The notes beneath the pieces are model-generated. The model saw only the letters and a list, made by a program, of their open reading frames with translations. It made no database searches and was not told the DNA's origin. Shown in pieces: positions 17,013 to 26,661 of a stretch of 29,090 nt of DNA. Position 1 is the stretch's first letter; every line of letters starts with the position of its first letter. This stretch comes from a virus. The DNA is taken from positions 1-29,090 of the IMG/VR virus record IMGVR_UViG_3300032282_004537; one strand, given 5' to 3'. The translations under genes were made by a program, and so were the position numbers.

Positions 17013-17789
17013 ATGACAAGCGGCGTATATATCATAAAAAATAAAATTAATAATAAAGTTTATATAGGAAGTTCAATTCATATTCCTAAAAGATGGAAAG
17101 AACACATAAGACATTTAGACAGCAATGAACATACTAATCAATATTTACAAAATTCTTGGAATCAAAATGGAAAAGACAATTTTGAATTTTTAATAGCCGA
17201 AGAATGTGATATAGAAAATTTATTGATAGTAGAACAAAAATGGCTTGATACTACAAAATCATATGAGCCAGAAAATGGCTATAATATTTGTCAGTATGCG
17301 GGCAACACTCTTGGAAGGTTTCATACAGAAGAAGCAAGAAAGAAAATTAGTGAAAACCACCACGATGTTAGTGGAGAAAATAACCCTATGTTTGGCGTTC
17401 CTTCACCAAATTTTGGTAAAAGACACAGCGAAGAAACAAAAAATAAAATATCTCAAAAACTAAAGGGTAAGAAATCTTGGAATGAAGGAAAAACAAAAGA
17501 AAATGATCTTTTACTAAAAAAACATTCAGAAAGAATGACTGGTAAAAATAATCCTTTTTATGGGAAAACCCTTTCTGAAGAAAGAAAAGATCAATTAAGA
17601 AAAAATAAAAGTGGTGAAAATAATTCCTTGTCTAAATTGACTTGGGAAAAGGTTAGGCAAATAAGAAAACTAAACAAAGATGGCTTGTCTAATCGCAAGA
17701 TTGCTGCTATGTTTGATGTATCTTCAACTACCATCTGTAGTATTGTAAATAATCTATCTTGGAAAGAGGAAAATAATGGAACGAATTAA
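17013..17789 (+). CDS. GIY-YIG homing endonuclease with NUMOD3 repeats
   Basis: A free-standing intron-type endonuclease of the I-TevI / Seg kind. The GIY-YIG domain is at ~1-95: SGVYIIKN, VYIGSS, R27 of KRWKEH, and E74 (LLIVEQKWLD). It is followed by DNA-binding NUMOD3 modules (GENNPMFGV, GKRHSEETKNKISQ, GKNNPFYGKTLSEERKDQLR) and a C-terminal helix-turn-helix of the NUMOD1 kind (GLSNRKIAAMFDVSSTTICS). Its 3' end overlaps the dnaE start by 14 bases. Such enzymes cut the matching site in phages lacking them and spread by repair. Position next to dnaE, and just after a dnaE 5' remnant, suggests dnaE is the target region. Confidence 0.9.
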   Translation: MTSGVYIIKNKINNKVYIGSSIHIPKRWKEHIRHLDSNEHTNQYLQNSWNQNGKDNFEFLIAEECDIENLLIVEQKWLDTTKSYEPENGYNICQYAGNTLGRFHTEEARKKISENHHDVSGENNPMFGVPSPNFGKRHSEETKNKISQKLKGKKSWNEGKTKENDLLLKKHSERMTGKNNPFYGKTLSEERKDQLRKNKSGENNSLSKLTWEKVRQIRKLNKDGLSNRKIAAMFDVSSTTICSIVNNLSWKEENNGTN

Positions 17790-20700
17790 GTCAAAAATTA
17801 AGTTCATCGGACTCCATTGTCATGACGGCTTCTCACTTTTTGATGGACTTGGATTGCCGCAAGAACATATGGATTTTGCTTATTCAAATGGAATGGATGC
17901 CATGGCTATAACAAACCATGGCAACATGAATTCTCTTGCATATCAAGTTCTACATGCCAAGAAAATGAAAAAGGAAGGAAAAGATTTCAAGCCGATCTAT
18001 GGCTGTGAAATGTATTTTCATCCTTCTATTGCTGCTTGGCGGAAAGATAAGGAAGAAATTGAAAAAACAACAAAAGCAAAAAAAGAGGACGAAGAGATCA
18101 CAGGAGCGATTGTTGAGAACGAAGAAGAGACAAAGAAGACTAAGAAGAGTATCCTCAATCGGCGTTCCCACCTTGTTCTTCTCGCACAAAATCAGAAAGG
18201 TCTGAATAATCTTTTTACTCTTATCAGCAAGAGTTTTTCAGACGAGAATTACTATCGTTTTCCTCGTATTGACTATGAAATGTTGAAGCAATTCAACGAA
18301 GGTATTATTGCGTCTTCTGCCTGTCTTGGTGGAGTATATGCTACTGATTTTTGGGAGAATTGGGATAATGGTGAAGAAGCAATTCTAAATGCTATGCGTG
18401 AAACATCACGCAAGATGATTGATGTATTTGGTGATCGTTGGTATGGCGAAGTTCAGTGGAATGGTATTCCAGAACAGCACAAATTAAATCAACTGATTAT
18501 TCGTGTATGCGAAGAGTTTGGTATTAAAGTTATTTCTACTGGTGATAGTCATTATCCATCTCCCGGAGCTTGGAAAGACCGAGAAATTTACAAGAAACTT
18601 GGTTTTCTTGGTAATGGCAAAACAATTGATACTACCCTTCCAGATAGTATTGATGACATGGAATATACACTTTATCCCAAGAACGGTGATGAAATGTGGC
18701 AGGCATACAAGAAGTATTCTGCCAAGTGTGGTGTAAAGTATAATGACGATTTTGTCCTCAAAACAATTGAGGAAACATGGGATATTGCCTTCAATCGTAT
18801 TGAAAACTTTATTCCAGATAATACTGTTCGTCTGCCAAATTTTATTCTTCCCGAAGGTAAAACAGCAGAAGAAACACTTGATCAACTCGCAGAAACAGGT
18901 TTGCGAGATATGAAGAAGTGGAGCAATAAAGAATATCATGATCGCCTTCTACGAGAACTTGATGTAATCAAGGAGCGTGGATTTGCCAAGTATTTCTTGA
19001 CAATGAAAGCGATTTCTGATCGTGCAAATGAAAGTTATATTACTGGTCCCGGTCGTGGTTCTGCGGCAGGTGCTCTTGTATCTTATGTTCTTGGAATTAC
19101 TCAAGTTGATCCAATTAAGCATGGCCTTCAATTTGAGCGTTTCCTTTCAAAGACAGCAACAGATTATCCCGATATTGATTATGATGTAAGTGATGCTATG
19201 GGATTGAAACAGAACCTTATTGATGAATGGGGCAAGAATAATGTTGTTCCAATTACAAATTGGAATACACTACAGCTGCGTTCACTAATCAAGGATATTA
19301 GTAAGTTCTATGGCGTTGATTTCCAAGAGGTAAATGCAGTAACAAATAAAATGTTGCTTGAAGCAACTCCACTTGCGAAAGCGGAGCATGGAATTACTGC
19401 TGGTGTATATAATCCAACATTCGAAGAGGTAATGAAATATTCACTATCCCTTCAAACATTCCTCGGTCAGTATCCGCATATCAAAACCCATATTGAACAA
19501 TTACATGGTTCAATCCGTTCAGCATCTCGTCATGCTGGCGGTATTGTTGTTGGTGAAAATCTTGATAAATGGATGCCGCTAATCAATAGCAAGGGTGTTC
19601 GCCAAACACCTTGGAGTGAGGGTCAGAACGTCCGTCACCTTGAACCTATGGGTTTTATCAAGTTTGACGTACTTGGTCTTGAAACTTTGAATATGATGGA
19701 GAAAGCAATTCAGCATGTTCTCCGACGTCATCATGGAATTAAAAATCCAGAATTCAAAGATGTGAAGCAATTCTATTCCAAACATCTACATCCTGATGTC
19801 TTGGACATGAATGACAAGAATGTATATGAGAATATTTTTCATGCTGGTAAATGGGCAGGAATTTTCCAATTTACAGAAAGTGGAGCACAAAATTTCTGTC
19901 AGAAAGTAAAGCCAAACAATATCGTTGATATTTCTTCTATTACTTCTATTTTCCGTCCCGGTCCTCTATCTGCCGGGGTAGATAAATCATTTGCCGAAAG
20001 TAAGCATGATCCGGATAGTGTTGTGTATGAACATCCACTAATCAAAGAGGCTACAAGTGAAACATACGGATACTTGGTTTTCCAAGAACAGATTGCCTTA
20101 CTTGCTCACAAACTTGGTCGTGACATTTCTCTTGATGAAGGTAATTCTCTCCGAAAAGTCTTGACCAAGAAAGGAACAGGAAAGGAGGCAGAAGTTAAAG
20201 AAAAACTACACGATAAGTTTATTAATGGTTGTGTAGATAAAGGTCTTGGTAAAGAGATTGGTGAGAAACTGTGGCAGAAGTTTATTTACTTCTCAGGATA
20301 CGGTTTCAACAAGTCTCATGCTGTATCTTATTCTATTATTTCTTTCCAGTGTGCTTGGTTGTACAATTATTATCCAAGCGAATGGCTTGCTGCCTATCTT
20401 GACAGTCAGCCAGAAACAAAGAAAGAAAAGGCAGTAAATATCGTAAAGGCCGCTGGATATAATGTTCAAGGCGTAGATATTAATAAGTCTGGAAAAGTAT
20501 GGGAAATTAGTGAAGATGGAAAAACATTAATTCAGCCACTTTCAGCCATCAAGGGTGTAGGTGATGCTGCTATTAAAGAGATCCTTGATCATAGACCGTT
20601 TAAAACGATTGAGGACTTCCTTTTCCATCCTCGTGTAAGTTATAGTAAGTTGAATAAGAAGAATGTTGATGCTCTTTGTAGGAGTGAAGCACTTCTGTCA

Positions 20701-21195
20701 TTAATGGATAGTCGCTTTACTGGAGGTAAGCATTTCTGGTCTGCTGTCGCTGTTGATCGTCCTCGTAAACCGGATAATCTCCTTGAGAATATTAAAACAT
20801 ATGCAGCAGAAGGAGACTTTACGCGAGATGAAAAAATTCTTAACACTTTGGAGTTGACAGGAGTTTATCCAATCAATATGATAGTCTCCGAGGATGTTCA
20901 GAAGAAACTTGCAGAAAAAATGATCCCACCTCTAGGTGAATTTGATCAAGAACTTGGTATTTGTTGGTTCATTCCAAAAGGTATTGAGAAGAAAACAACG
21001 AAGAAAGGTACACAATATCTAATCGTTGAGGCGATTGATGAAACTAATATTGTGACCAAGATTAAGTGTTGGAAATTTGATCCAAAGAAAGATATAATTC
21101 ATCTCAATCATCCTTATGTTGCAAGGTTGGAATATCAAGAGGATTGGGGTTTTTCAGTTCGTTCTATTAACAAAGCATTTAAGCTTATTGGGTAA
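17776..21195 (+). CDS. dnaE: DNA polymerase III alpha subunit (family C polymerase)
   Basis: The replicative polymerase, 1139 aa. Domains in order: PHP (GLHCHDGFSLFDG, ITNHGN, YGCEMYF, GDSHYPSP), with most metal-type His residues kept; palm with GPGRGSAAGALVSYVLG near 422 and catalytic D466 and D468 in PDIDYD; third Asp D631 in KFDVLGL; fingers and beta-binding region with GYGFNKSHAVSYS; helix-hairpin-helix AIKGVGDAAIKEIL near 922; and a C-terminal OB fold to ~1130. A Lys/Glu-rich insert lies near 93-125. It is slightly shorter than E. coli DnaE. ATG 17776 follows AAAGAGGAAAATA, inside the endonuclease gene. A DnaE in place of a family A or B phage polymerase is unusual for T4-like neighbours. 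Confidence 0.95.
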   Translation: MERIKSKIKFIGLHCHDGFSLFDGLGLPQEHMDFAYSNGMDAMAITNHGNMNSLAYQVLHAKKMKKEGKDFKPIYGCEMYFHPSIAAWRKDKEEIEKTTKAKKEDEEITGAIVENEEETKKTKKSILNRRSHLVLLAQNQKGLNNLFTLISKSFSDENYYRFPRIDYEMLKQFNEGIIASSACLGGVYATDFWENWDNGEEAILNAMRETSRKMIDVFGDRWYGEVQWNGIPEQHKLNQLIIRVCEEFGIKVISTGDSHYPSPGAWKDREIYKKLGFLGNGKTIDTTLPDSIDDMEYTLYPKNGDEMWQAYKKYSAKCGVKYNDDFVLKTIEETWDIAFNRIENFIPDNTVRLPNFILPEGKTAEETLDQLAETGLRDMKKWSNKEYHDRLLRELDVIKERGFAKYFLTMKAISDRANESYITGPGRGSAAGALVSYVLGITQVDPIKHGLQFERFLSKTATDYPDIDYDVSDAMGLKQNLIDEWGKNNVVPITNWNTLQLRSLIKDISKFYGVDFQEVNAVTNKMLLEATPLAKAEHGITAGVYNPTFEEVMKYSLSLQTFLGQYPHIKTHIEQLHGSIRSASRHAGGIVVGENLDKWMPLINSKGVRQTPWSEGQNVRHLEPMGFIKFDVLGLETLNMMEKAIQHVLRRHHGIKNPEFKDVKQFYSKHLHPDVLDMNDKNVYENIFHAGKWAGIFQFTESGAQNFCQKVKPNNIVDISSITSIFRPGPLSAGVDKSFAESKHDPDSVVYEHPLIKEATSETYGYLVFQEQIALLAHKLGRDISLDEGNSLRKVLTKKGTGKEAEVKEKLHDKFINGCVDKGLGKEIGEKLWQKFIYFSGYGFNKSHAVSYSIISFQCAWLYNYYPSEWLAAYLDSQPETKKEKAVNIVKAAGYNVQGVDINKSGKVWEISEDGKTLIQPLSAIKGVGDAAIKEILDHRPFKTIEDFLFHPRVSYSKLNKKNVDALCRSEALLSLMDSRFTGGKHFWSAVAVDRPRKPDNLLENIKTYAAEGDFTRDEKILNTLELTGVYPINMIVSEDVQKKLAEKMIPPLGEFDQELGICWFIPKGIEKKTTKKGTQYLIVEAIDETNIVTKIKCWKFDPKKDIIHLNHPYVARLEYQEDWGFSVRSINKAFKLIG

Positions 21196-22007: not shown

Positions 22008-22495
22008 TGTTGTTAGAATATACTACCGTACATGAAAATGTTTTCAAACCAACGAGAGCAAATCCAAGTGACGTTGGTCTTGATCTCTTCTTTTCTCCCG
22101 ATGTAAAACACGGAGAACATGATCAAGAAAAGAATATACCACTTGGTAGTATTGTAATCATGCCAAGTCAATGTGTAAAAATCAGAACCGGTTTGCGCTT
22201 TGCTGTACCACATGGATTTTGTTTAGAAATTAAGAACAGAAGTAGCGTAAGTAGTAAAAAAGAACTTCTTGTTGGTGGTGGTGTTATTGATCCCGGTTAT
22301 GATGGTGAAGTTGTAATCATCATGCATAATGTTGGTCGTAATCCACAAATTATTAAACCAGGAGACAAAATTGCACAAGCAGTATTGTTTCCAGTAGTTC
22401 ATGTTAGACCAATATTGGTCGATGAGAAAAAATTATATGCTGATAAAATCGCCATGAGCGATAGAGGTAATAATGGATTTGGTTCAACAGGCTGA
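22007..22495 (+). CDS. dut: dUTP pyrophosphatase (trimeric dUTPase)
   Basis: Hydrolyses dUTP to dUMP, keeping uracil out of phage DNA and feeding ThyX. All five family motifs are present in order: DVGLDLF (motif 1), NRSSVS (2), GGVIDPGYDGEVVI (3), PGDKIAQAVLFPV (4) and a C-terminal arm RGNNGFGSTG (5). Length 162 aa is normal for the homotrimer. ATG 22007 is 7 bases after AAGGTG. ATG 22001 in the same frame is too close to the SD. The last 23 bases overlap the HNH endonuclease gene, so the conserved arm motif and the start of a selfish gene share DNA. Confidence 0.95.
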   Translation: MLLEYTTVHENVFKPTRANPSDVGLDLFFSPDVKHGEHDQEKNIPLGSIVIMPSQCVKIRTGLRFAVPHGFCLEIKNRSSVSSKKELLVGGGVIDPGYDGEVVIIMHNVGRNPQIIKPGDKIAQAVLFPVVHVRPILVDEKKLYADKIAMSDRGNNGFGSTG

Positions 22496-23006
22496 TAATA
22501 GTATTTCTGTCCAAGAAATATGGAAGCCGGCAATAAAAAATAATAAAGTTCTACCTGGCTATGAAGTTTCTAATCTTGGTAAAATTAGAAACAAAAAAGG
22601 TATTATCTTAAAATGTCAAGATGAAGTGCCATCAGGCAAAGGTGCTTTCAAAGGTGCCAGACAATCGATAGGATTATCAATACCAGAAAATTTATATGAA
22701 GATTATAAATACAAGAAAACAACACCAAATCGTAAATCTTGTAAGATTACAATCTCAGTTCATCGTCTAATCATAGAAACTTTTAAACCTATCGATGATT
22801 ATCCACCTATTCCAAAACACGAATGGGATGTAACTCCAGAAAGTGCTAAAAGATTAATAAGAGAATGTTGTGTTGTAGATCACATAGATAATAATCCATT
22901 AAACAACAACATTAATAATTTACGCTGGGTTTCATTAAAAGAAAACCAAACATTTATAAAAAAACATTTATTCAAAAAAGAAAGTATTGGTGAAAACATA
23001 TGCTAA
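22473..23006 (+). CDS. HNH homing endonuclease (NUMOD4 + HNH)
   Basis: A 177-aa free-standing endonuclease. NUMOD4 at ~15-45 reads EIWKPAIKNNKVLPGYEVSN followed by LGKIRN. The HNH part reads VDHIDNNPLNNNINNLRWVS near 138-157. It starts inside the last codons of dut (AGAGGTAATA before ATG 22473) and overlaps the methyltransferase start by 7 bases, so it has inserted without breaking either neighbour. Likely cleaves dut or adjacent sequence in related phages lacking it. Separate from the GIY-YIG enzyme. Confidence 0.88.
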   Translation: MDLVQQADNSISVQEIWKPAIKNNKVLPGYEVSNLGKIRNKKGIILKCQDEVPSGKGAFKGARQSIGLSIPENLYEDYKYKKTTPNRKSCKITISVHRLIIETFKPIDDYPPIPKHEWDVTPESAKRLIRECCVVDHIDNNPLNNNINNLRWVSLKENQTFIKKHLFKKESIGENIC

Positions 23007-23488: not shown

Positions 23489-23763
23489 AACCAATAAAAG
23501 ATAAATCAAAATCATACAAGGATAAAGAAAAAGACCTCAAACAGAAATTAAATATGTTTGATCGTATTCCAGATCATTGCTTGACTTGTAACTCTCCGTT
23601 TGATAGAAAGAATAAGGAGCAAGTTCAGTCGTGGTTTGTTGTTGTAAAAAACGCTGACAATAAAGTAAATCTTTATTGCCCTTCATGTTGGGGTAAAGCA
23701 ACATCGTTGGTTGAACAAGTTATTAATGGAGAAAAAAATGCTACAGACAGCTCTGACGTTTGA
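23485..23763 (+). CDS. Small zinc-ribbon-like protein, 92 aa
   Basis: Basic, helical N-terminus (MKPIKDKSKSYKDKEKDLKQ), then HCLTCNSPFD and LYCPSCWGKA: two CxxC knuckles about 36 residues apart that would hold one zinc. The start overlaps the methyltransferase stop (ATGA). Its 3' end overlaps the IMPDH gene start by 26 bases. No function can be given. Confidence 0.6.
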   Translation: MKPIKDKSKSYKDKEKDLKQKLNMFDRIPDHCLTCNSPFDRKNKEQVQSWFVVVKNADNKVNLYCPSCWGKATSLVEQVINGEKNATDSSDV

Positions 23764-24571
23764 TGATGTACTTCTTGTGCCAAAATACAGTTCAATTACG
23801 AGCCGAAGCGAAGTTGATCTAAAACTTAATCTAGATCCAACAAGACAACTTTCTCTTCCTGTTATTTCATCTCCGATGGATACGGTTACAGAAGTAGAAA
23901 TGGCTGTAACTATGTCCAAACATGGTGGTCTTGGAATTATACATCGTTATAATTCTATTCAAGAGCAAGTAAAACTTGTTTGTGATGCAAAACAAGCAGG
24001 TGCCAAACTTGTTGGTGCTGCTGTTGGTTCAACAGGCGATTTCTATGAAAGAGCATTTGAACTTATAAAATTTGATATTGATGTAATTTGTGTTGATGTT
24101 GCACACGGACATCACCAGAATGTAAAAGAAGCAATACAAAAGATTAAAAATCATCCAAGTCATTATAAGTTCCATCTTATGGCTGGAAATGTTGCTACAG
24201 GAAAAGCTTTTCAAGATTTAAGTGATTGGGGAGCTGATAGTATCCGTGTAGGTATTGGTGGTGGTTGTTTCGTCCCAGGAACTCTTGTAAATACTGAAAA
24301 TGGTTTGAAGAAAATTGAAGAAGTAAAAGTAGGTGATAAAGTTTTCAGTCATACAGGAAAACTACAATCTGTTGTTGATACTCTTGTGTTTGATAGAGAC
24401 GAAGAAATTGTATCTATTAATGGTATTGATTGCACTAAAAATCACGAGTTTTATGTAATTGACAAAGAAAATGCCAGTCGTGTAAATGAAGATAATATTC
24501 ATCTATTTGCCCGATGGGTTCATGCAGAAGAGCTTGATATGAAAAAACATCTACTTATTGAATTGGAGTAG
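23738..24571 (+). CDS. guaB: IMP dehydrogenase-like N-terminal half fused to N-intein
   Basis: Residues 1-176 are the first part of an IMPDH/GMP-reductase TIM barrel: FDDVLLVPKYSSI, SSPMDTVTE, GGLGIIHRYNS, DVAHGHHQ, MAGNVATG and VGIGGG. The CBS domains usual in IMPDH are absent. Directly after GIGGG begins a 101-residue N-intein (C177, CFVPGT) and a stop codon. ATG 23738 follows GGAG by 6 bases. A longer in-frame frame from TTG 23711 lies in the previous gene. The enzyme becomes whole only if this chain trans-splices with the product of 24684-25313. IMPDH makes XMP from IMP and leads to guanine nucleotides. GMP reductase is the alternative. Confidence 0.9.
   Translation: MLQTALTFDDVLLVPKYSSITSRSEVDLKLNLDPTRQLSLPVISSPMDTVTEVEMAVTMSKHGGLGIIHRYNSIQEQVKLVCDAKQAGAKLVGAAVGSTGDFYERAFELIKFDIDVICVDVAHGHHQNVKEAIQKIKNHPSHYKFHLMAGNVATGKAFQDLSDWGADSIRVGIGGGCFVPGTLVNTENGLKKIEEVKVGDKVFSHTGKLQSVVDTLVFDRDEEIVSINGIDCTKNHEFYVIDKENASRVNEDNIHLFARWVHAEELDMKKHLLIELE
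24266..24568 (+). mobile_element. N-terminal half of a split intein (IMPDH-1 type)
   Basis: 101 residues from the nucleophile C177 of the host protein to the stop. CFVPGTLVNTENGLKKIEEV is the first block. TKNHEFYV is block B with the TxxH motif, and FARWVHAEELDMKKH lies near the end. The sequence closely recalls the IMPDH-1 split intein reported from environmental phage-like sequences. No endonuclease domain is inside. Insertion is at GIGGG/SICST, two residues before the catalytic Cys. Confidence 0.92.
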
Positions 24572-24694
24572 GTACAAAATGCAGGAACAGCACAACTGAA
24601 TGGTTATAAATTATATCGCGTTAGAGAAGATGAAAATAGAAAAGTAGATTTTCTAAAAGAGATCAAACAAATAAGGGAGTTTTATGAAGTTTAA
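24572..24694 (+). pseudogene. Open-frame relic between the intein halves, possibly a homing endonuclease tail
   Basis: In the frame of the N-half and directly after its stop, 40 codons stay open to TAA 24692. They include LNGYKLYRVREDENRK and FLKEIKQIREFYEV. The shape (L-x-GYK-x-x-RxRE-E, then a Lys-rich helix) looks like the C-terminal end of Vsr-like (very-short-patch-repair) homing endonucleases, the type associated with fractured intein genes. No start codon or upstream domain remains. The tail overlaps the C-half start and its SD. The identification is tentative. Confidence 0.5.
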
Positions 24695-24803
24695 ATTAAA
24701 AGAAATAACCTCTATTGAGACAAAACACTATAAGGGTGTCGTACATGATCTTACCGTAAATGAAGATCATTCTTATAATATTCGTGGAACAATTGTTCAT
24801 AAC
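24684..24803 (+). mobile_element. C-terminal half of the split intein
   Basis: 40 residues starting MKFKLKEITSIETKHYKG, with block F (VHDLTVNEDHSYN) and block G ending VHN, followed by Ser as the +1 extein residue. This His-Asn-Ser junction is the standard splice end. It pairs with the N-half at 24266-24568. Confidence 0.92.
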
Positions 24804-25313
24804 TCTATCTGTTCAACACGACTACAAACAGGTTTTGGTGTTCCTAATCTTGCTGCTATATTTGATTGTGTTCAGACACAGGCATATAAGAGTGGAAAAA
24901 CAAAACTTATTGTTGATGGTGGTATTAAGAATAGTGGAGATATGGTAAAAGCTTTTGCTGCTGGTGCTCATTTTGTTATGTGTGGTTCATTACTTGCCGG
25001 AACAGATGAAAGTCCAGGTGAAACTTTTGTTGATGGTAATGGCGTAAAGATGAAGAATTACCGTGGTATGGCTTCAAGAGAAGCACAAACAGATTGGCGC
25101 GGTAAAAGTTCAGCACCAGAAGGTATTTCTACGTTCATTAAACACAAAGGTTCAGTAAACCCTATCCTTGATGATATTCGTGGAAACATCCAAAGTGGAT
25201 TTTCATATGCCGGTGCAAGAAACTTCACAGAACTATCAGGTAAGGTTGAGTTTATTCAGCAGACAAGTGCTGGTGCTGCTGAAAGCTTTACACATATCTT
25301 ACATAAAAAATGA
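24684..25313 (+). CDS. guaB: C-intein fused to the IMP dehydrogenase-like C-terminal half
   Basis: Residues 1-40 are the C-intein and 41-209 the C-extein. The extein starts S41-I42-C43, completing the IMPDH loop GSICSTR with catalytic C43. Then TGFGVPNLAAIFDC, IVDGGIKNSGDMVKAFAAGA, MCGSLLAGTDE, YRGMASREAQ, APEGIS and SGFSYAGA follow. The flap region is short and lacks the clear Arg-Tyr pair of typical IMPDH. The joined enzyme would be 345 residues, close to GMP reductase length. ATG 24684 follows AAGGGAG. The stop overlaps the start of the next gene (ATGA). Confidence 0.9.
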   Translation: MKFKLKEITSIETKHYKGVVHDLTVNEDHSYNIRGTIVHNSICSTRLQTGFGVPNLAAIFDCVQTQAYKSGKTKLIVDGGIKNSGDMVKAFAAGAHFVMCGSLLAGTDESPGETFVDGNGVKMKNYRGMASREAQTDWRGKSSAPEGISTFIKHKGSVNPILDDIRGNIQSGFSYAGARNFTELSGKVEFIQQTSAGAAESFTHILHKK

Positions 25314-25648
25314 GTGAAGAACAAAATCCACCTCAAGGTGCAAAACCATGCCAAGTATGTTTCGAAACAATAGACGGTGAATATGCTCGTCTGATGATAA
25401 AATTAAGACATGAAGAACTCACTAAAAAAGAGTTCTTTATTGCTATTATTAACGGTTTTCTTGAAGATGAACCAAACTTAAAAGAATTCCTAAAAGCATA
25501 TCGAAAGAGTAAAGGTTATGCTCAATGGAAAGAAGAAGTGCTTGACAAGGAAATAGAAGATGGTAAAATTGAGATGCGTAAATTCGGTCTAGATAAAGAT
25601 GAAATAGACGATATTTACGATCTTTTTGATGATGAGGCAGGATTATGA
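25310..25648 (+). CDS. Unknown acidic protein, 112 aa
   Basis: Begins MSEEQNPPQGAKPCQVCFET with one CxxC and continues as a helical, Glu/Lys/Asp-rich chain (EFFIAIINGFLEDEPNLKEF) to an acidic end (DIYDLFDDEAGL). It sits between guaB and the purA-like gene with ATGA overlaps on both sides, so it is translated with them. No domain recognised. The context suggests only co-expression with purine genes. Confidence 0.6.
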   Translation: MSEEQNPPQGAKPCQVCFETIDGEYARLMIKLRHEELTKKEFFIAIINGFLEDEPNLKEFLKAYRKSKGYAQWKEEVLDKEIEDGKIEMRKFGLDKDEIDDIYDLFDDEAGL

Positions 25649-26661
25649 ATTATAAAAGATTAAATGCTGATATTATTATTGGGCTAGATCATGGTGACGA
25701 GGGAAAAGGTAAAGTAACCAATTCATTACTAAAAAATGGTGAATATACTCACTGCATTAGGTACAATGGAGGTCATAATGCCGGCCACACCATTTACAAT
25801 AATGGAAAGAAAGTTGTAACACATATAGTTCCTTCTGGTGTATTACAAGGTGTAAAATCTATTATTGGTCCTGCTTGTGTTGTATCTCCAACACTCTTAA
25901 AAAAGGAAATAGAAGATTTAGAAGAAGCAGGTGTAGAAGTAAAAAAACATCTTTATATAGATAAACGATGTAATGTTATTACTCCTCGTCACCTTGAGGA
26001 AGACGGAAAAGATACAAAAATAGGTACAACAAGAAAAGGTAATGGTCCAGCATATCGCGACAAATATGATCGCAAAGGTTTAAGATTTGGCGATTTACCA
26101 GCAGATCCAGATTTTAAACTAACTGATATGTACGAGGAATTCTTTAATAATGATCACGTTGTTGCTCTTTTTGAGGGAGCACAAGGTTTCGGATTAGATA
26201 TTGATTGGGGAGATTATCCATACGTTACATCATCAACTTGTACGGTTGGTGGAGCAGTAATAAATGGACTTCCACCAAAATCAATCCGTAAAGTGTATGG
26301 AATAGCCAAAGCATACCAAACATATGTAGGAGCGAAGAAATTTCAGCCAGAAGGCGAAATATTCAATAAAATTCGTGAAATTGGTATGGAATATGGCGCT
26401 ACAACAGGAAGACCAAGACAAGTAAATTATCTTGATTTAGATTTCCTTGTTAAATCAACAAACATTAATGGTGTCTCGCATCTTATTATTAATAAAACTG
26501 ATATTTTACAAGAAGTTAATGAATGGAAGATGTATAAAGACGGTCAATTAATTGATTGTAAATATGAAGACAAGTTTAAGGATTTAATCAAAACAGCACT
26601 TTTAAGAAAATGTGAAGAATTAGAACAAGTTCATTTTTCATATTCAGCGGAAGGTATTTGA
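25645..26661 (+). CDS. purA: Adenylosuccinate synthetase-family enzyme (PurA / PurZ0-like)
   Basis: A short member of the family, 338 aa, like archaeal PurA and phage PurZ rather than the ~430-aa bacterial form. Phosphate loop GDEGKG at 17-22 keeps D18, the catalytic Asp, and H48 (NAGH) is the second catalytic residue. RKGNGPAYRDKYDRKGLRFG, EGAQGFGLDID, YVTSSTCT and the Asp-binding ATTGRPRQVNYLD follow. NKTD at 283-286 is the guanine-recognition motif, so GTP is the expected phosphate donor. PurA makes adenylosuccinate from IMP. PurZ enzymes act on dGMP to make the 2-aminoadenine precursor and usually lack the Asp, and later forms lack the guanine motif. This one therefore fits PurA or the GTP-using PurZ0. 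Confidence 0.85.
   Translation: MNYKRLNADIIIGLDHGDEGKGKVTNSLLKNGEYTHCIRYNGGHNAGHTIYNNGKKVVTHIVPSGVLQGVKSIIGPACVVSPTLLKKEIEDLEEAGVEVKKHLYIDKRCNVITPRHLEEDGKDTKIGTTRKGNGPAYRDKYDRKGLRFGDLPADPDFKLTDMYEEFFNNDHVVALFEGAQGFGLDIDWGDYPYVTSSTCTVGGAVINGLPPKSIRKVYGIAKAYQTYVGAKKFQPEGEIFNKIREIGMEYGATTGRPRQVNYLDLDFLVKSTNINGVSHLIINKTDILQEVNEWKMYKDGQLIDCKYEDKFKDLIKTALLRKCEELEQVHFSYSAEGI

What the first reader, a model, noticed from the sequence alone, without database searches (positions are those of the whole stretch)
23738..25313. IMPDH-like enzyme encoded in two genes joined by a split intein
The N-half ends GIGGG then a complete N-intein (C-F-V-P-G-T, TxxH) and a stop. The C-half begins with a 40-residue C-intein ending VHN, then SICSTR. 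The joint restores the IMPDH active-site loop. The sequences closely recall the IMPDH-1 split intein, previously known mainly from environmental fragments, so this window offers the gene in full context: between dut/methyltransferase and a purA-like gene. Activity depends on trans-splicing at a site two residues from the catalytic Cys.
Basis: partly seen in the sequence, partly recalled or inferred. Interest (0 to 1): 0.8.

Follow-up and report, generated by a model that had tools for sequence, protein, structure and literature searches.

The report
Split-intein phage IMPDH-like gene, HEG lost
An uncultivated phage makes an IMPDH-like purine enzyme from two separate genes whose products should be stitched together by a split intein; relatives show that this is a mobile element that normally carries its own DNA-cutting enzyme, which this phage has lost, leaving a visible scar.

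Summary
ORFs 23738-24571 and 24684-25313 encode the two halves of an IMPDH-like enzyme. The first ends in a 101-aa N-intein, the second starts with a 40-aa C-intein, and the intein catalytic residues checked are present. The junction GGG/SIC is the one published for IMPDH-1. It is a new member of a known kind (IMPDH-1-type split intein, 'fractured gene').

What relatives add: IMG/VR holds 43 contigs with an intein at this exact site and at least 72 with an empty site. Most inteins are split. Many have an EDxHD/Vsr-like homing endonuclease gene (HEG) between the halves. Between the window and its closest intein-bearing relative (L001) the intein is about 99% identical in DNA while the exteins are 80-91%, so the cassette has moved. 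The window has lost 716 bp of the HEG. It keeps only the HEG's last 35 codons, which overlap the second gene's start and hold its Shine-Dalgarno. At least four other lineages show similar scars.

Two cautions. Trans-splicing is inferred, not shown. The enzyme lacks IMPDH's Arg-Tyr flap dyad and has a shortened flap, so IMP dehydrogenase activity is uncertain. Identity with published IMPDH-1 could not be tested letter for letter: no held text gives its sequence.

The parts
23738..24571 (+). N-half gene: N-extein (IMPDH-like residues 1-176) plus N-intein, TAG stop
   Evidence: GGAG Shine-Dalgarno at 23728-23731
23738..24265 (+). N-extein, 176 aa, ends ...IRVGIGGG; no CBS domain
   Evidence: PF00478 positions 1-179, E 7e-53; contiguous homologues in empty-site relatives
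24266..24568 (+). N-intein, 101 aa, Cys1, T57-x-N59-H60
   Evidence: Hint_2 E 9e-7; alignment A1
24569..24683 (+). Stop codon and spacer: 18 nt of the HEG leader joined to the HEG 3' end after a 716-bp deletion relative to L001
24587..24694 (+). Homing-endonuclease remnant: last 35 codons and TAA stop (TAQLNGYKLYRVREDENRKVDFLKEIKQIREFYEV*), without start codon, NUMOD3 motifs or nuclease core; overlaps the C-half start
   Evidence: 100% identical to residues 229-263 of the L001 HEG; profile E 2e-11 with Z set to 1000; sequence
24673..24679 (+). Probable Shine-Dalgarno (AAGGGAG) of the C-half, inside the HEG remnant
   Evidence: sequence; function inferred
24684..25313 (+). C-half gene: C-intein plus C-extein
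24684..24803 (+). C-intein, 40 aa, ends ...GTIVHN
   Evidence: Intein_splicing 120-155, E 0.0017; alignment A2
24804..25310 (+). C-extein, 169 aa, SICSTR... with the catalytic-loop Cys at residue +3; short flap RGMASREAQTDWRGKSSAPEG
   Evidence: PF00478 positions 177-345, E 5e-48

Best explanation
An IMPDH-superfamily enzyme of an uncultivated phage is encoded in two adjacent genes split at the active-site loop by a naturally split class 1 intein of the IMPDH-1 type. Each half is translated from its own start codon. The two intein halves should associate, and Cys1, the penultimate His, Asn40 and Ser+1 should carry out protein trans-splicing, joining ...GIGGG to SICSTR... and rebuilding the catalytic loop, so that enzyme activity depends on splicing. 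The intein and a free-standing EDxHD/Vsr-like homing endonuclease between its halves spread together as one cassette into intein-free alleles of related phages. In the window the endonuclease gene has been deleted (716 bp), leaving 35 codons that overlap the C-half start and carry its ribosome-binding site. The window's copy can therefore no longer home by its own endonuclease but should still splice. Shown: gene architecture, conserved catalytic residues, empty and occupied alleles, intein more similar than its flanks, the HEG deletion. Inferred: trans-splicing, homing by that nuclease, the reason the remnant is kept, the enzyme reaction.
For: Architecture and domains. Catalytic residues invariant. 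Contiguous intein-free relatives prove the insertion point to the codon. Occupied and empty alleles alternate within one tight clade of the extein tree. L002 (intein and HEG) and L005 (empty) have 507/507 identical C-extein bases and the same 48 bases around the junction. Window vs L001: intein 5 differences in 423 nt (N-intein dS 0.03, C-intein dS 0), exteins 147 in 1029 (dS 0.49 and 0.40), Fisher p 1e-17; L002 vs L003: 6/423 vs 126/1035, p 2e-13. HEG in the spacer of L001-L003 and others: NUMOD3 E 2e-10, DUF559 E 1e-6, PDB 3r3p E 2.5e-4. Purifying selection on intein and C-extein between older lineages: window vs L002/L003 dN/dS 0.03-0.10. HEG scar identical at protein level to the L001 HEG C-terminus; shuffled spacers give nothing comparable.
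Against: No splicing or cleavage data. Gain by homing and precise loss cannot be told apart from counts on an unrooted tree. In L002 vs L005 an 18-SNP cluster 25-127 nt upstream of the junction fits co-conversion but also ordinary recombination. The window's own intein lineage separated too recently from L001 to measure selection since the HEG was lost. The IMPDH flap dyad is absent, so the enzyme reaction is uncertain.
Confidence: 0.9

Rival explanations
1. The gap between the halves is a sequencing or assembly error in a contiguous intein-containing gene.
For: The window is a metagenomic contig known from one record; contiguous inteins at this site exist (L090, L099, L120, L122).
Against: Other contigs from other metagenomes have the same stop after the N-intein and a new ATG with its own Shine-Dalgarno before the C-intein, with spacers from 17 to 1099 bp. 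The window's spacer is homologous to the HEG of L001.
Confidence: 0.02
2. The locus is a decaying pseudogene: the intein no longer splices, the enzyme is lost and the host enzyme is used instead.
For: The HEG has decayed. A recently disabled intein could not be recognised from dN/dS alone, because the window and L001 inteins are almost identical.
Against: Both halves are open, start codons and Shine-Dalgarno sites are present, all splicing residues tested are intact, and the C-extein vs the empty-site relative L004 has dN/dS 0.05.
Confidence: 0.07
3. The two-gene split is a regulatory device: trans-splicing controls when the phage enzyme becomes active, and this is why the split intein is kept after loss of the HEG.
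For: Split inteins persist without HEG in several lineages, and the site is directly at the catalytic loop.
Against: At least 72 relatives encode the enzyme in one piece, so no regulation is needed generally. Persistence is equally expected because precise loss of both intein halves is rare.
Confidence: 0.1
4. The enzyme is a GMP reductase or another IMPDH-superfamily activity, not an IMP dehydrogenase; with the neighbouring purA-like gene it could turn guanine into adenine nucleotides.
For: No CBS domain; flap shortened and without Arg-Tyr; other members of the same intein family sit in GMP reductase-like genes (L096, L099, L116, L117).
Against: Best NCBIfam model is IMP dehydrogenase (300 vs 217 bits for GMP reductase), best solved relatives and folds are IMPDH catalytic domains, and the C-terminus keeps an IMPDH-like AG..ES pattern.
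Confidence: 0.3

Closest known systems
IMPDH-1 natural split intein (Dassa et al. 2009; Carvajal-Vallejos et al. 2012; used in PMC7090010, PMC12350263)
   Same: Natural split, Cys1, Ser+1, same insertion site GGG/SIC (PMC12350263), split near the classical endonuclease position, comparable half sizes (published table: 106 and 42 residues, apparently with a few extein residues; PMC11766414).
   Different: Sequence identity could not be measured (sequence not in any held text). Here the locus has been stripped of its HEG and sits in a phage contig with full neighbourhood.
'Fractured gene' arrangement: split intein halves with a free-standing HEG between them (Dassa et al. 2009, known here from its title and citations)
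   Same: Relatives L001-L003 and many others show exactly this.
   Different: In the window only a 35-codon 3' remnant of the HEG is left.
EDxHD (Vsr-like) homing endonucleases, type I-Bth0305I (PMC3943268; PDB 3r3p)
   Same: The HEG of relatives has NUMOD3 motifs and a C-terminal domain matching 3r3p (E 2.5e-4).
   Different: Only the relatives' genes; the window's remnant keeps none of the nuclease core.
gp41-1 split intein (PDB 6qaz)
   Same: Same Hint fold family, class 1, Ser+1.
   Different: Only weak sequence similarity (E 0.02-0.07); different host gene.
Bacterial IMP dehydrogenase catalytic domain (GuaB without CBS, e.g. PDB 4my1, 7oj2, 5uzc)
   Same: 42-47% identical positions, TM about 0.89 for the intein-free relative L004.
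   Different: Short flap, no Arg-Tyr dyad, no CBS domain.

Membership tests
IMPDH-1-type split intein | Insertion between GGG and SIC in the catalytic loop | tested here: met
   empty-site relatives contiguous at this codon
IMPDH-1-type split intein | N-intein and C-intein on separate genes, each with its own start | tested here: met
IMPDH-1-type split intein | Class 1 splicing residues: Cys1, block B TxxH, penultimate His, terminal Asn, Ser+1 | tested here: met
IMPDH-1-type split intein | High sequence identity to the published IMPDH-1 halves | not testable with these tools
   sequence not in held papers or PDB
IMPDH-1-type split intein | Trans-splicing activity | not testable with these tools
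   needs an experiment
Fractured gene with HEG (Dassa 2009) | Intact EDxHD-type HEG between the halves | tested here: not met
   Window: 35-codon remnant only. Met in relatives L001-L003, L085-L087 and others. The window is a derived, HEG-less form.
EDxHD homing endonuclease (relatives' HEG) | NUMOD DNA-binding motifs plus Vsr-like nuclease domain | tested here: met
   NUMOD3 E 2e-10, DUF559 E 1e-6; 3r3p E 2.5e-4, 0.006 with profile. The four catalytic residues were not mapped one by one.
IMP dehydrogenase | IMPDH/GMPR TIM barrel with catalytic loop SICxTR | tested here: met
IMP dehydrogenase | Arg-Tyr dyad in the mobile flap | tested here: not met
   E. coli GuaB ...DRYFQ..., window ...QTDWRGKSSAPEG, flap about ten residues shorter; same in the phage relatives listed with this flap
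IMP dehydrogenase | NCBIfam equivalog cut-off TIGR01302 | tested here: not met
   300 of 481.5 bits for the intein-free relative L004; GMP reductase models also below their cut-offs

The most novel reading that the evidence does not exclude
The loci show a full life cycle of a split-intein mobile element: empty site, split intein with HEG arriving by homing, HEG deleted with a retained 3' scar that now serves only as the leader of the C-half, and in some lineages a contiguous intein. The scar would act as a ratchet: because the HEG 3' end overlaps the C-half start and holds its ribosome-binding site, HEG decay leaves the gene split and makes the phage permanently dependent on trans-splicing. 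The enzyme may in addition be a phage-specific IMPDH/GMPR subfamily with altered chemistry.
Probability: 0.3. Interest if true: 0.65.

Novelty: new member of a known kind. Interest (0 to 1): 0.48.

Why it matters
IMPDH-1 is a widely used protein-ligation tool whose natural setting was known mainly from environmental fragments. These loci place it in phage genomes, show empty and occupied alleles in close relatives (one pair identical over 507 bp of C-extein), show the intein being much younger than its flanks, and show repeated loss of the endonuclease with splicing residues kept. That makes a testable natural series for how split inteins arise and persist, and supplies about 30 new distinct split or contiguous inteins for the toolbox.

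Tried and rejected
Direct comparison with the published IMPDH-1 sequence: Dassa 2009 and Carvajal-Vallejos 2012 are not held, and searches for stretches of sequence in full texts found nothing. Solved structures: no close intein match. Bacterial and archaeal genomes: the N-intein alignment found no relative; the C-intein alignment gave one weak partial match in a Myxococcales MAG (L133), not followed. Named phages: no DNA match except a small contaminant-like record, no IMPDH intein among the listed N-intein matches; polymerase III is at most 31% identical to any of the listed phages, so the lineage is uncultivated. Stop-codon readthrough joining the halves was considered: after TAG the frame stays open for 40 codons, but the C-half is in another frame, and the frame is the HEG remnant. 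The first gapped alignment of the window and L001 cassettes was misplaced around the deletion and its 79% figure was discarded; part-by-part identities were used instead. A hairpin over the HEG ribosome-binding site was strong in L001-L003 and L085 but not in L086 or L087, so it is not a general feature.

Full report
Observation. The N-half (ATG 23738, TAG 24569-24571) carries 176 residues of an IMPDH-like barrel ending VGIGGG and then a 101-residue N-intein. The C-half (ATG 24684, stop at 25313) carries a 40-residue C-intein ending VHN and then 169 residues beginning SICSTR. Pfam IMPDH covers positions 1-179 in one gene and 177-345 in the other. The junction lies two residues before the loop cysteine. 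The neighbourhood dut, Dam methyltransferase, a 92-aa ORF, the two halves, a 112-aa ORF and a purA-like gene is confirmed by families and is syntenic in related contigs.

The intein. Cys1, T57-x-N59-H60, penultimate His39, Asn40 and Ser+1 are invariant in an alignment with five relatives, whose identity to the window goes down to 55% for the N-intein. This is the signature of a class 1 intein (established knowledge). The published IMPDH-1 junction is GGG/SIC (PMC12350263) and its halves have similar sizes (PMC11766414). The sequence of IMPDH-1 itself could not be obtained, so identity with it remains a recollection, not a test.

Relatives. A scan of IMG/VR with the C-half gave 80 loci, most of them intein-free genes contiguous through GIGGG-SICSTR. 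A scan with the N-intein alignment gave 49 loci. With those of the first scan, 43 contigs other than the window carry an intein in an IMPDH/GMPR gene at the same site. Most are split. Spacers fall into two classes: 565-1099 bp with a HEG (in L116 broken), and 17-282 bp without an intact one. Four are contiguous: L090, L099, L120, L122. No relative was found in 84,980 bacterial and archaeal species genomes with the N-intein query, and one weak partial match with the C-intein query.

The endonuclease and its loss. In L001 the spacer is 828 bp and encodes a 263-aa protein with NUMOD3 motifs and a C-terminal domain matching DUF559 and PDB 3r3p, 'mobile intron protein'. From general knowledge 3r3p is the I-Bth0305I catalytic domain; PMC3943268 names I-Bth0305I as the EDxHD example. 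The window's spacer equals the first 18 nt of L001's spacer (from the stop codon) joined to its last 97-98 nt with one substitution, a 716-bp deletion. The retained 35 codons are identical in protein to residues 229-263 of the L001 HEG. They run past the C-half ATG and contain its AAGGGAG. No start codon, NUMOD or nuclease core remains. L095, L097/L098, L107, L117 and L118/L119 also have the 3' end of a HEG just before the C-half start. Profile E-values are 4e-19 to 0.003 with the database size set to 1000 (L098 0.11), while shuffled spacers give 0.03 at best. On the extein tree these fall in several separate places, so loss happened repeatedly; I count at least five losses including the window, without claiming an exact number. 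That the remnant is kept because it carries the C-half ribosome-binding site is an inference.

Mobility. Window vs L001: the intein halves differ at 5 of 423 nt, the exteins at 147 of 1029 (Fisher p 1e-17). N-intein dS is 0.03, extein dS 0.49 and 0.40. L002 vs L003: 6 of 423 against 126 of 1035 (p 2e-13). Codon differences are not independent trials, so the p-values are indicative; the tenfold gap in dS is the stronger statement. The intein has therefore moved between these gene lineages after they diverged. L002 (intein and HEG) and L005 (empty) share 507 of 507 C-extein bases, all 48 bases around the junction, and are identical from -128 to -390; they differ by an 18-SNP cluster at -25 to -127. 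L003 is identical to L005 over the 254 nt before the junction. The extein tree needs at least 9 changes between empty and occupied over 90 rows, several of them inside the window's own clade of 12. Homing with co-conversion explains this best; recombination and precise loss are not excluded.

Selection. Between older lineages (window vs L002 and L003) dN/dS is 0.09-0.10 for the N-intein, 0.03 for the C-intein and 0.08-0.09 for the C-extein. Both halves and the intein have been kept functional in the long run. The window's own separation from L001 is too recent for such a test.

The enzyme. The intein-free relative L004 is closest to IMPDH catalytic domains in sequence and predicted fold and scores 300 bits on the IMPDH model against 217 on the best GMP reductase model, both below cut-off. 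The predicted model is weak exactly in the catalytic loop and flap (pLDDT under 50). Alignment with E. coli GuaB and GuaC shows that the flap is shortened and lacks Arg-Tyr. The motif RGMAS.EAQ..W[RK]G...S.EG runs through the phage group with few exceptions. The reaction is thus open; I put about 0.3 on a non-IMPDH activity.

Verdict. A real and well-preserved natural split intein of a known type, in a state (HEG deleted, split retained) that the relatives make interpretable. The architecture itself was already known from Dassa et al. 2009; what is added is population evidence for cassette movement, recurrent endonuclease loss with 3' scars, and a caution about the enzyme's name.

Noticed in passing
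L001:7185-7222, L002 and L003 same place: Hairpin (CCTCCTAA...TTAGGAGG) that would bury the HEG ribosome-binding site; z-scores -4.4, -3.4, -3.7; L085 has another strong one (-4.2). Absent in L086 and L087. The window's deletion removed it.
   Followed up: partly
window 22473-23006: Free-standing HNH endonuclease gene (HNH_3, NUMOD4) between dut and Dam methyltransferase; among 14 related loci only L007 also has it, so it is probably mobile.
   Followed up: partly
window 17013-17789: Homing endonuclease-like gene (PHROG 314 and GIY-YIG families) just before the DNA polymerase III alpha gene.
   Followed up: no
L096:6001-7420 and L099:6001-6430: Near-identical inteins (91-94% DNA) in a GMP reductase-like gene, one split with a HEG and one contiguous: a natural split/contiguous pair.
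   Followed up: partly
L108, L109, L110, L111, L121: Highly diverged IMPDH-like exteins with the same split intein type and a spacer of about 1 kb holding a different HEG-like ORF (three or more NUMOD3-like repeats).
   Followed up: partly
L123-L128: Similar N-inteins after GPGRGS in a DnaE-like polymerase; the window's own polymerase (17776-21195) has that site uninterrupted (GPGRGSAAG).
   Followed up: no
window 25645-26661: PurA-like gene (338 aa) that keeps GDEGKGK and scores better against PurA (281 bits) than PurZ (120 bits), both below cut-off; so no sign of the diaminopurine pathway.
   Followed up: partly
L002:6697-6842 vs L005: 18-SNP cluster at -25 to -127 from the junction in otherwise identical alleles: looks like a one-sided co-conversion tract.
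   Followed up: partly
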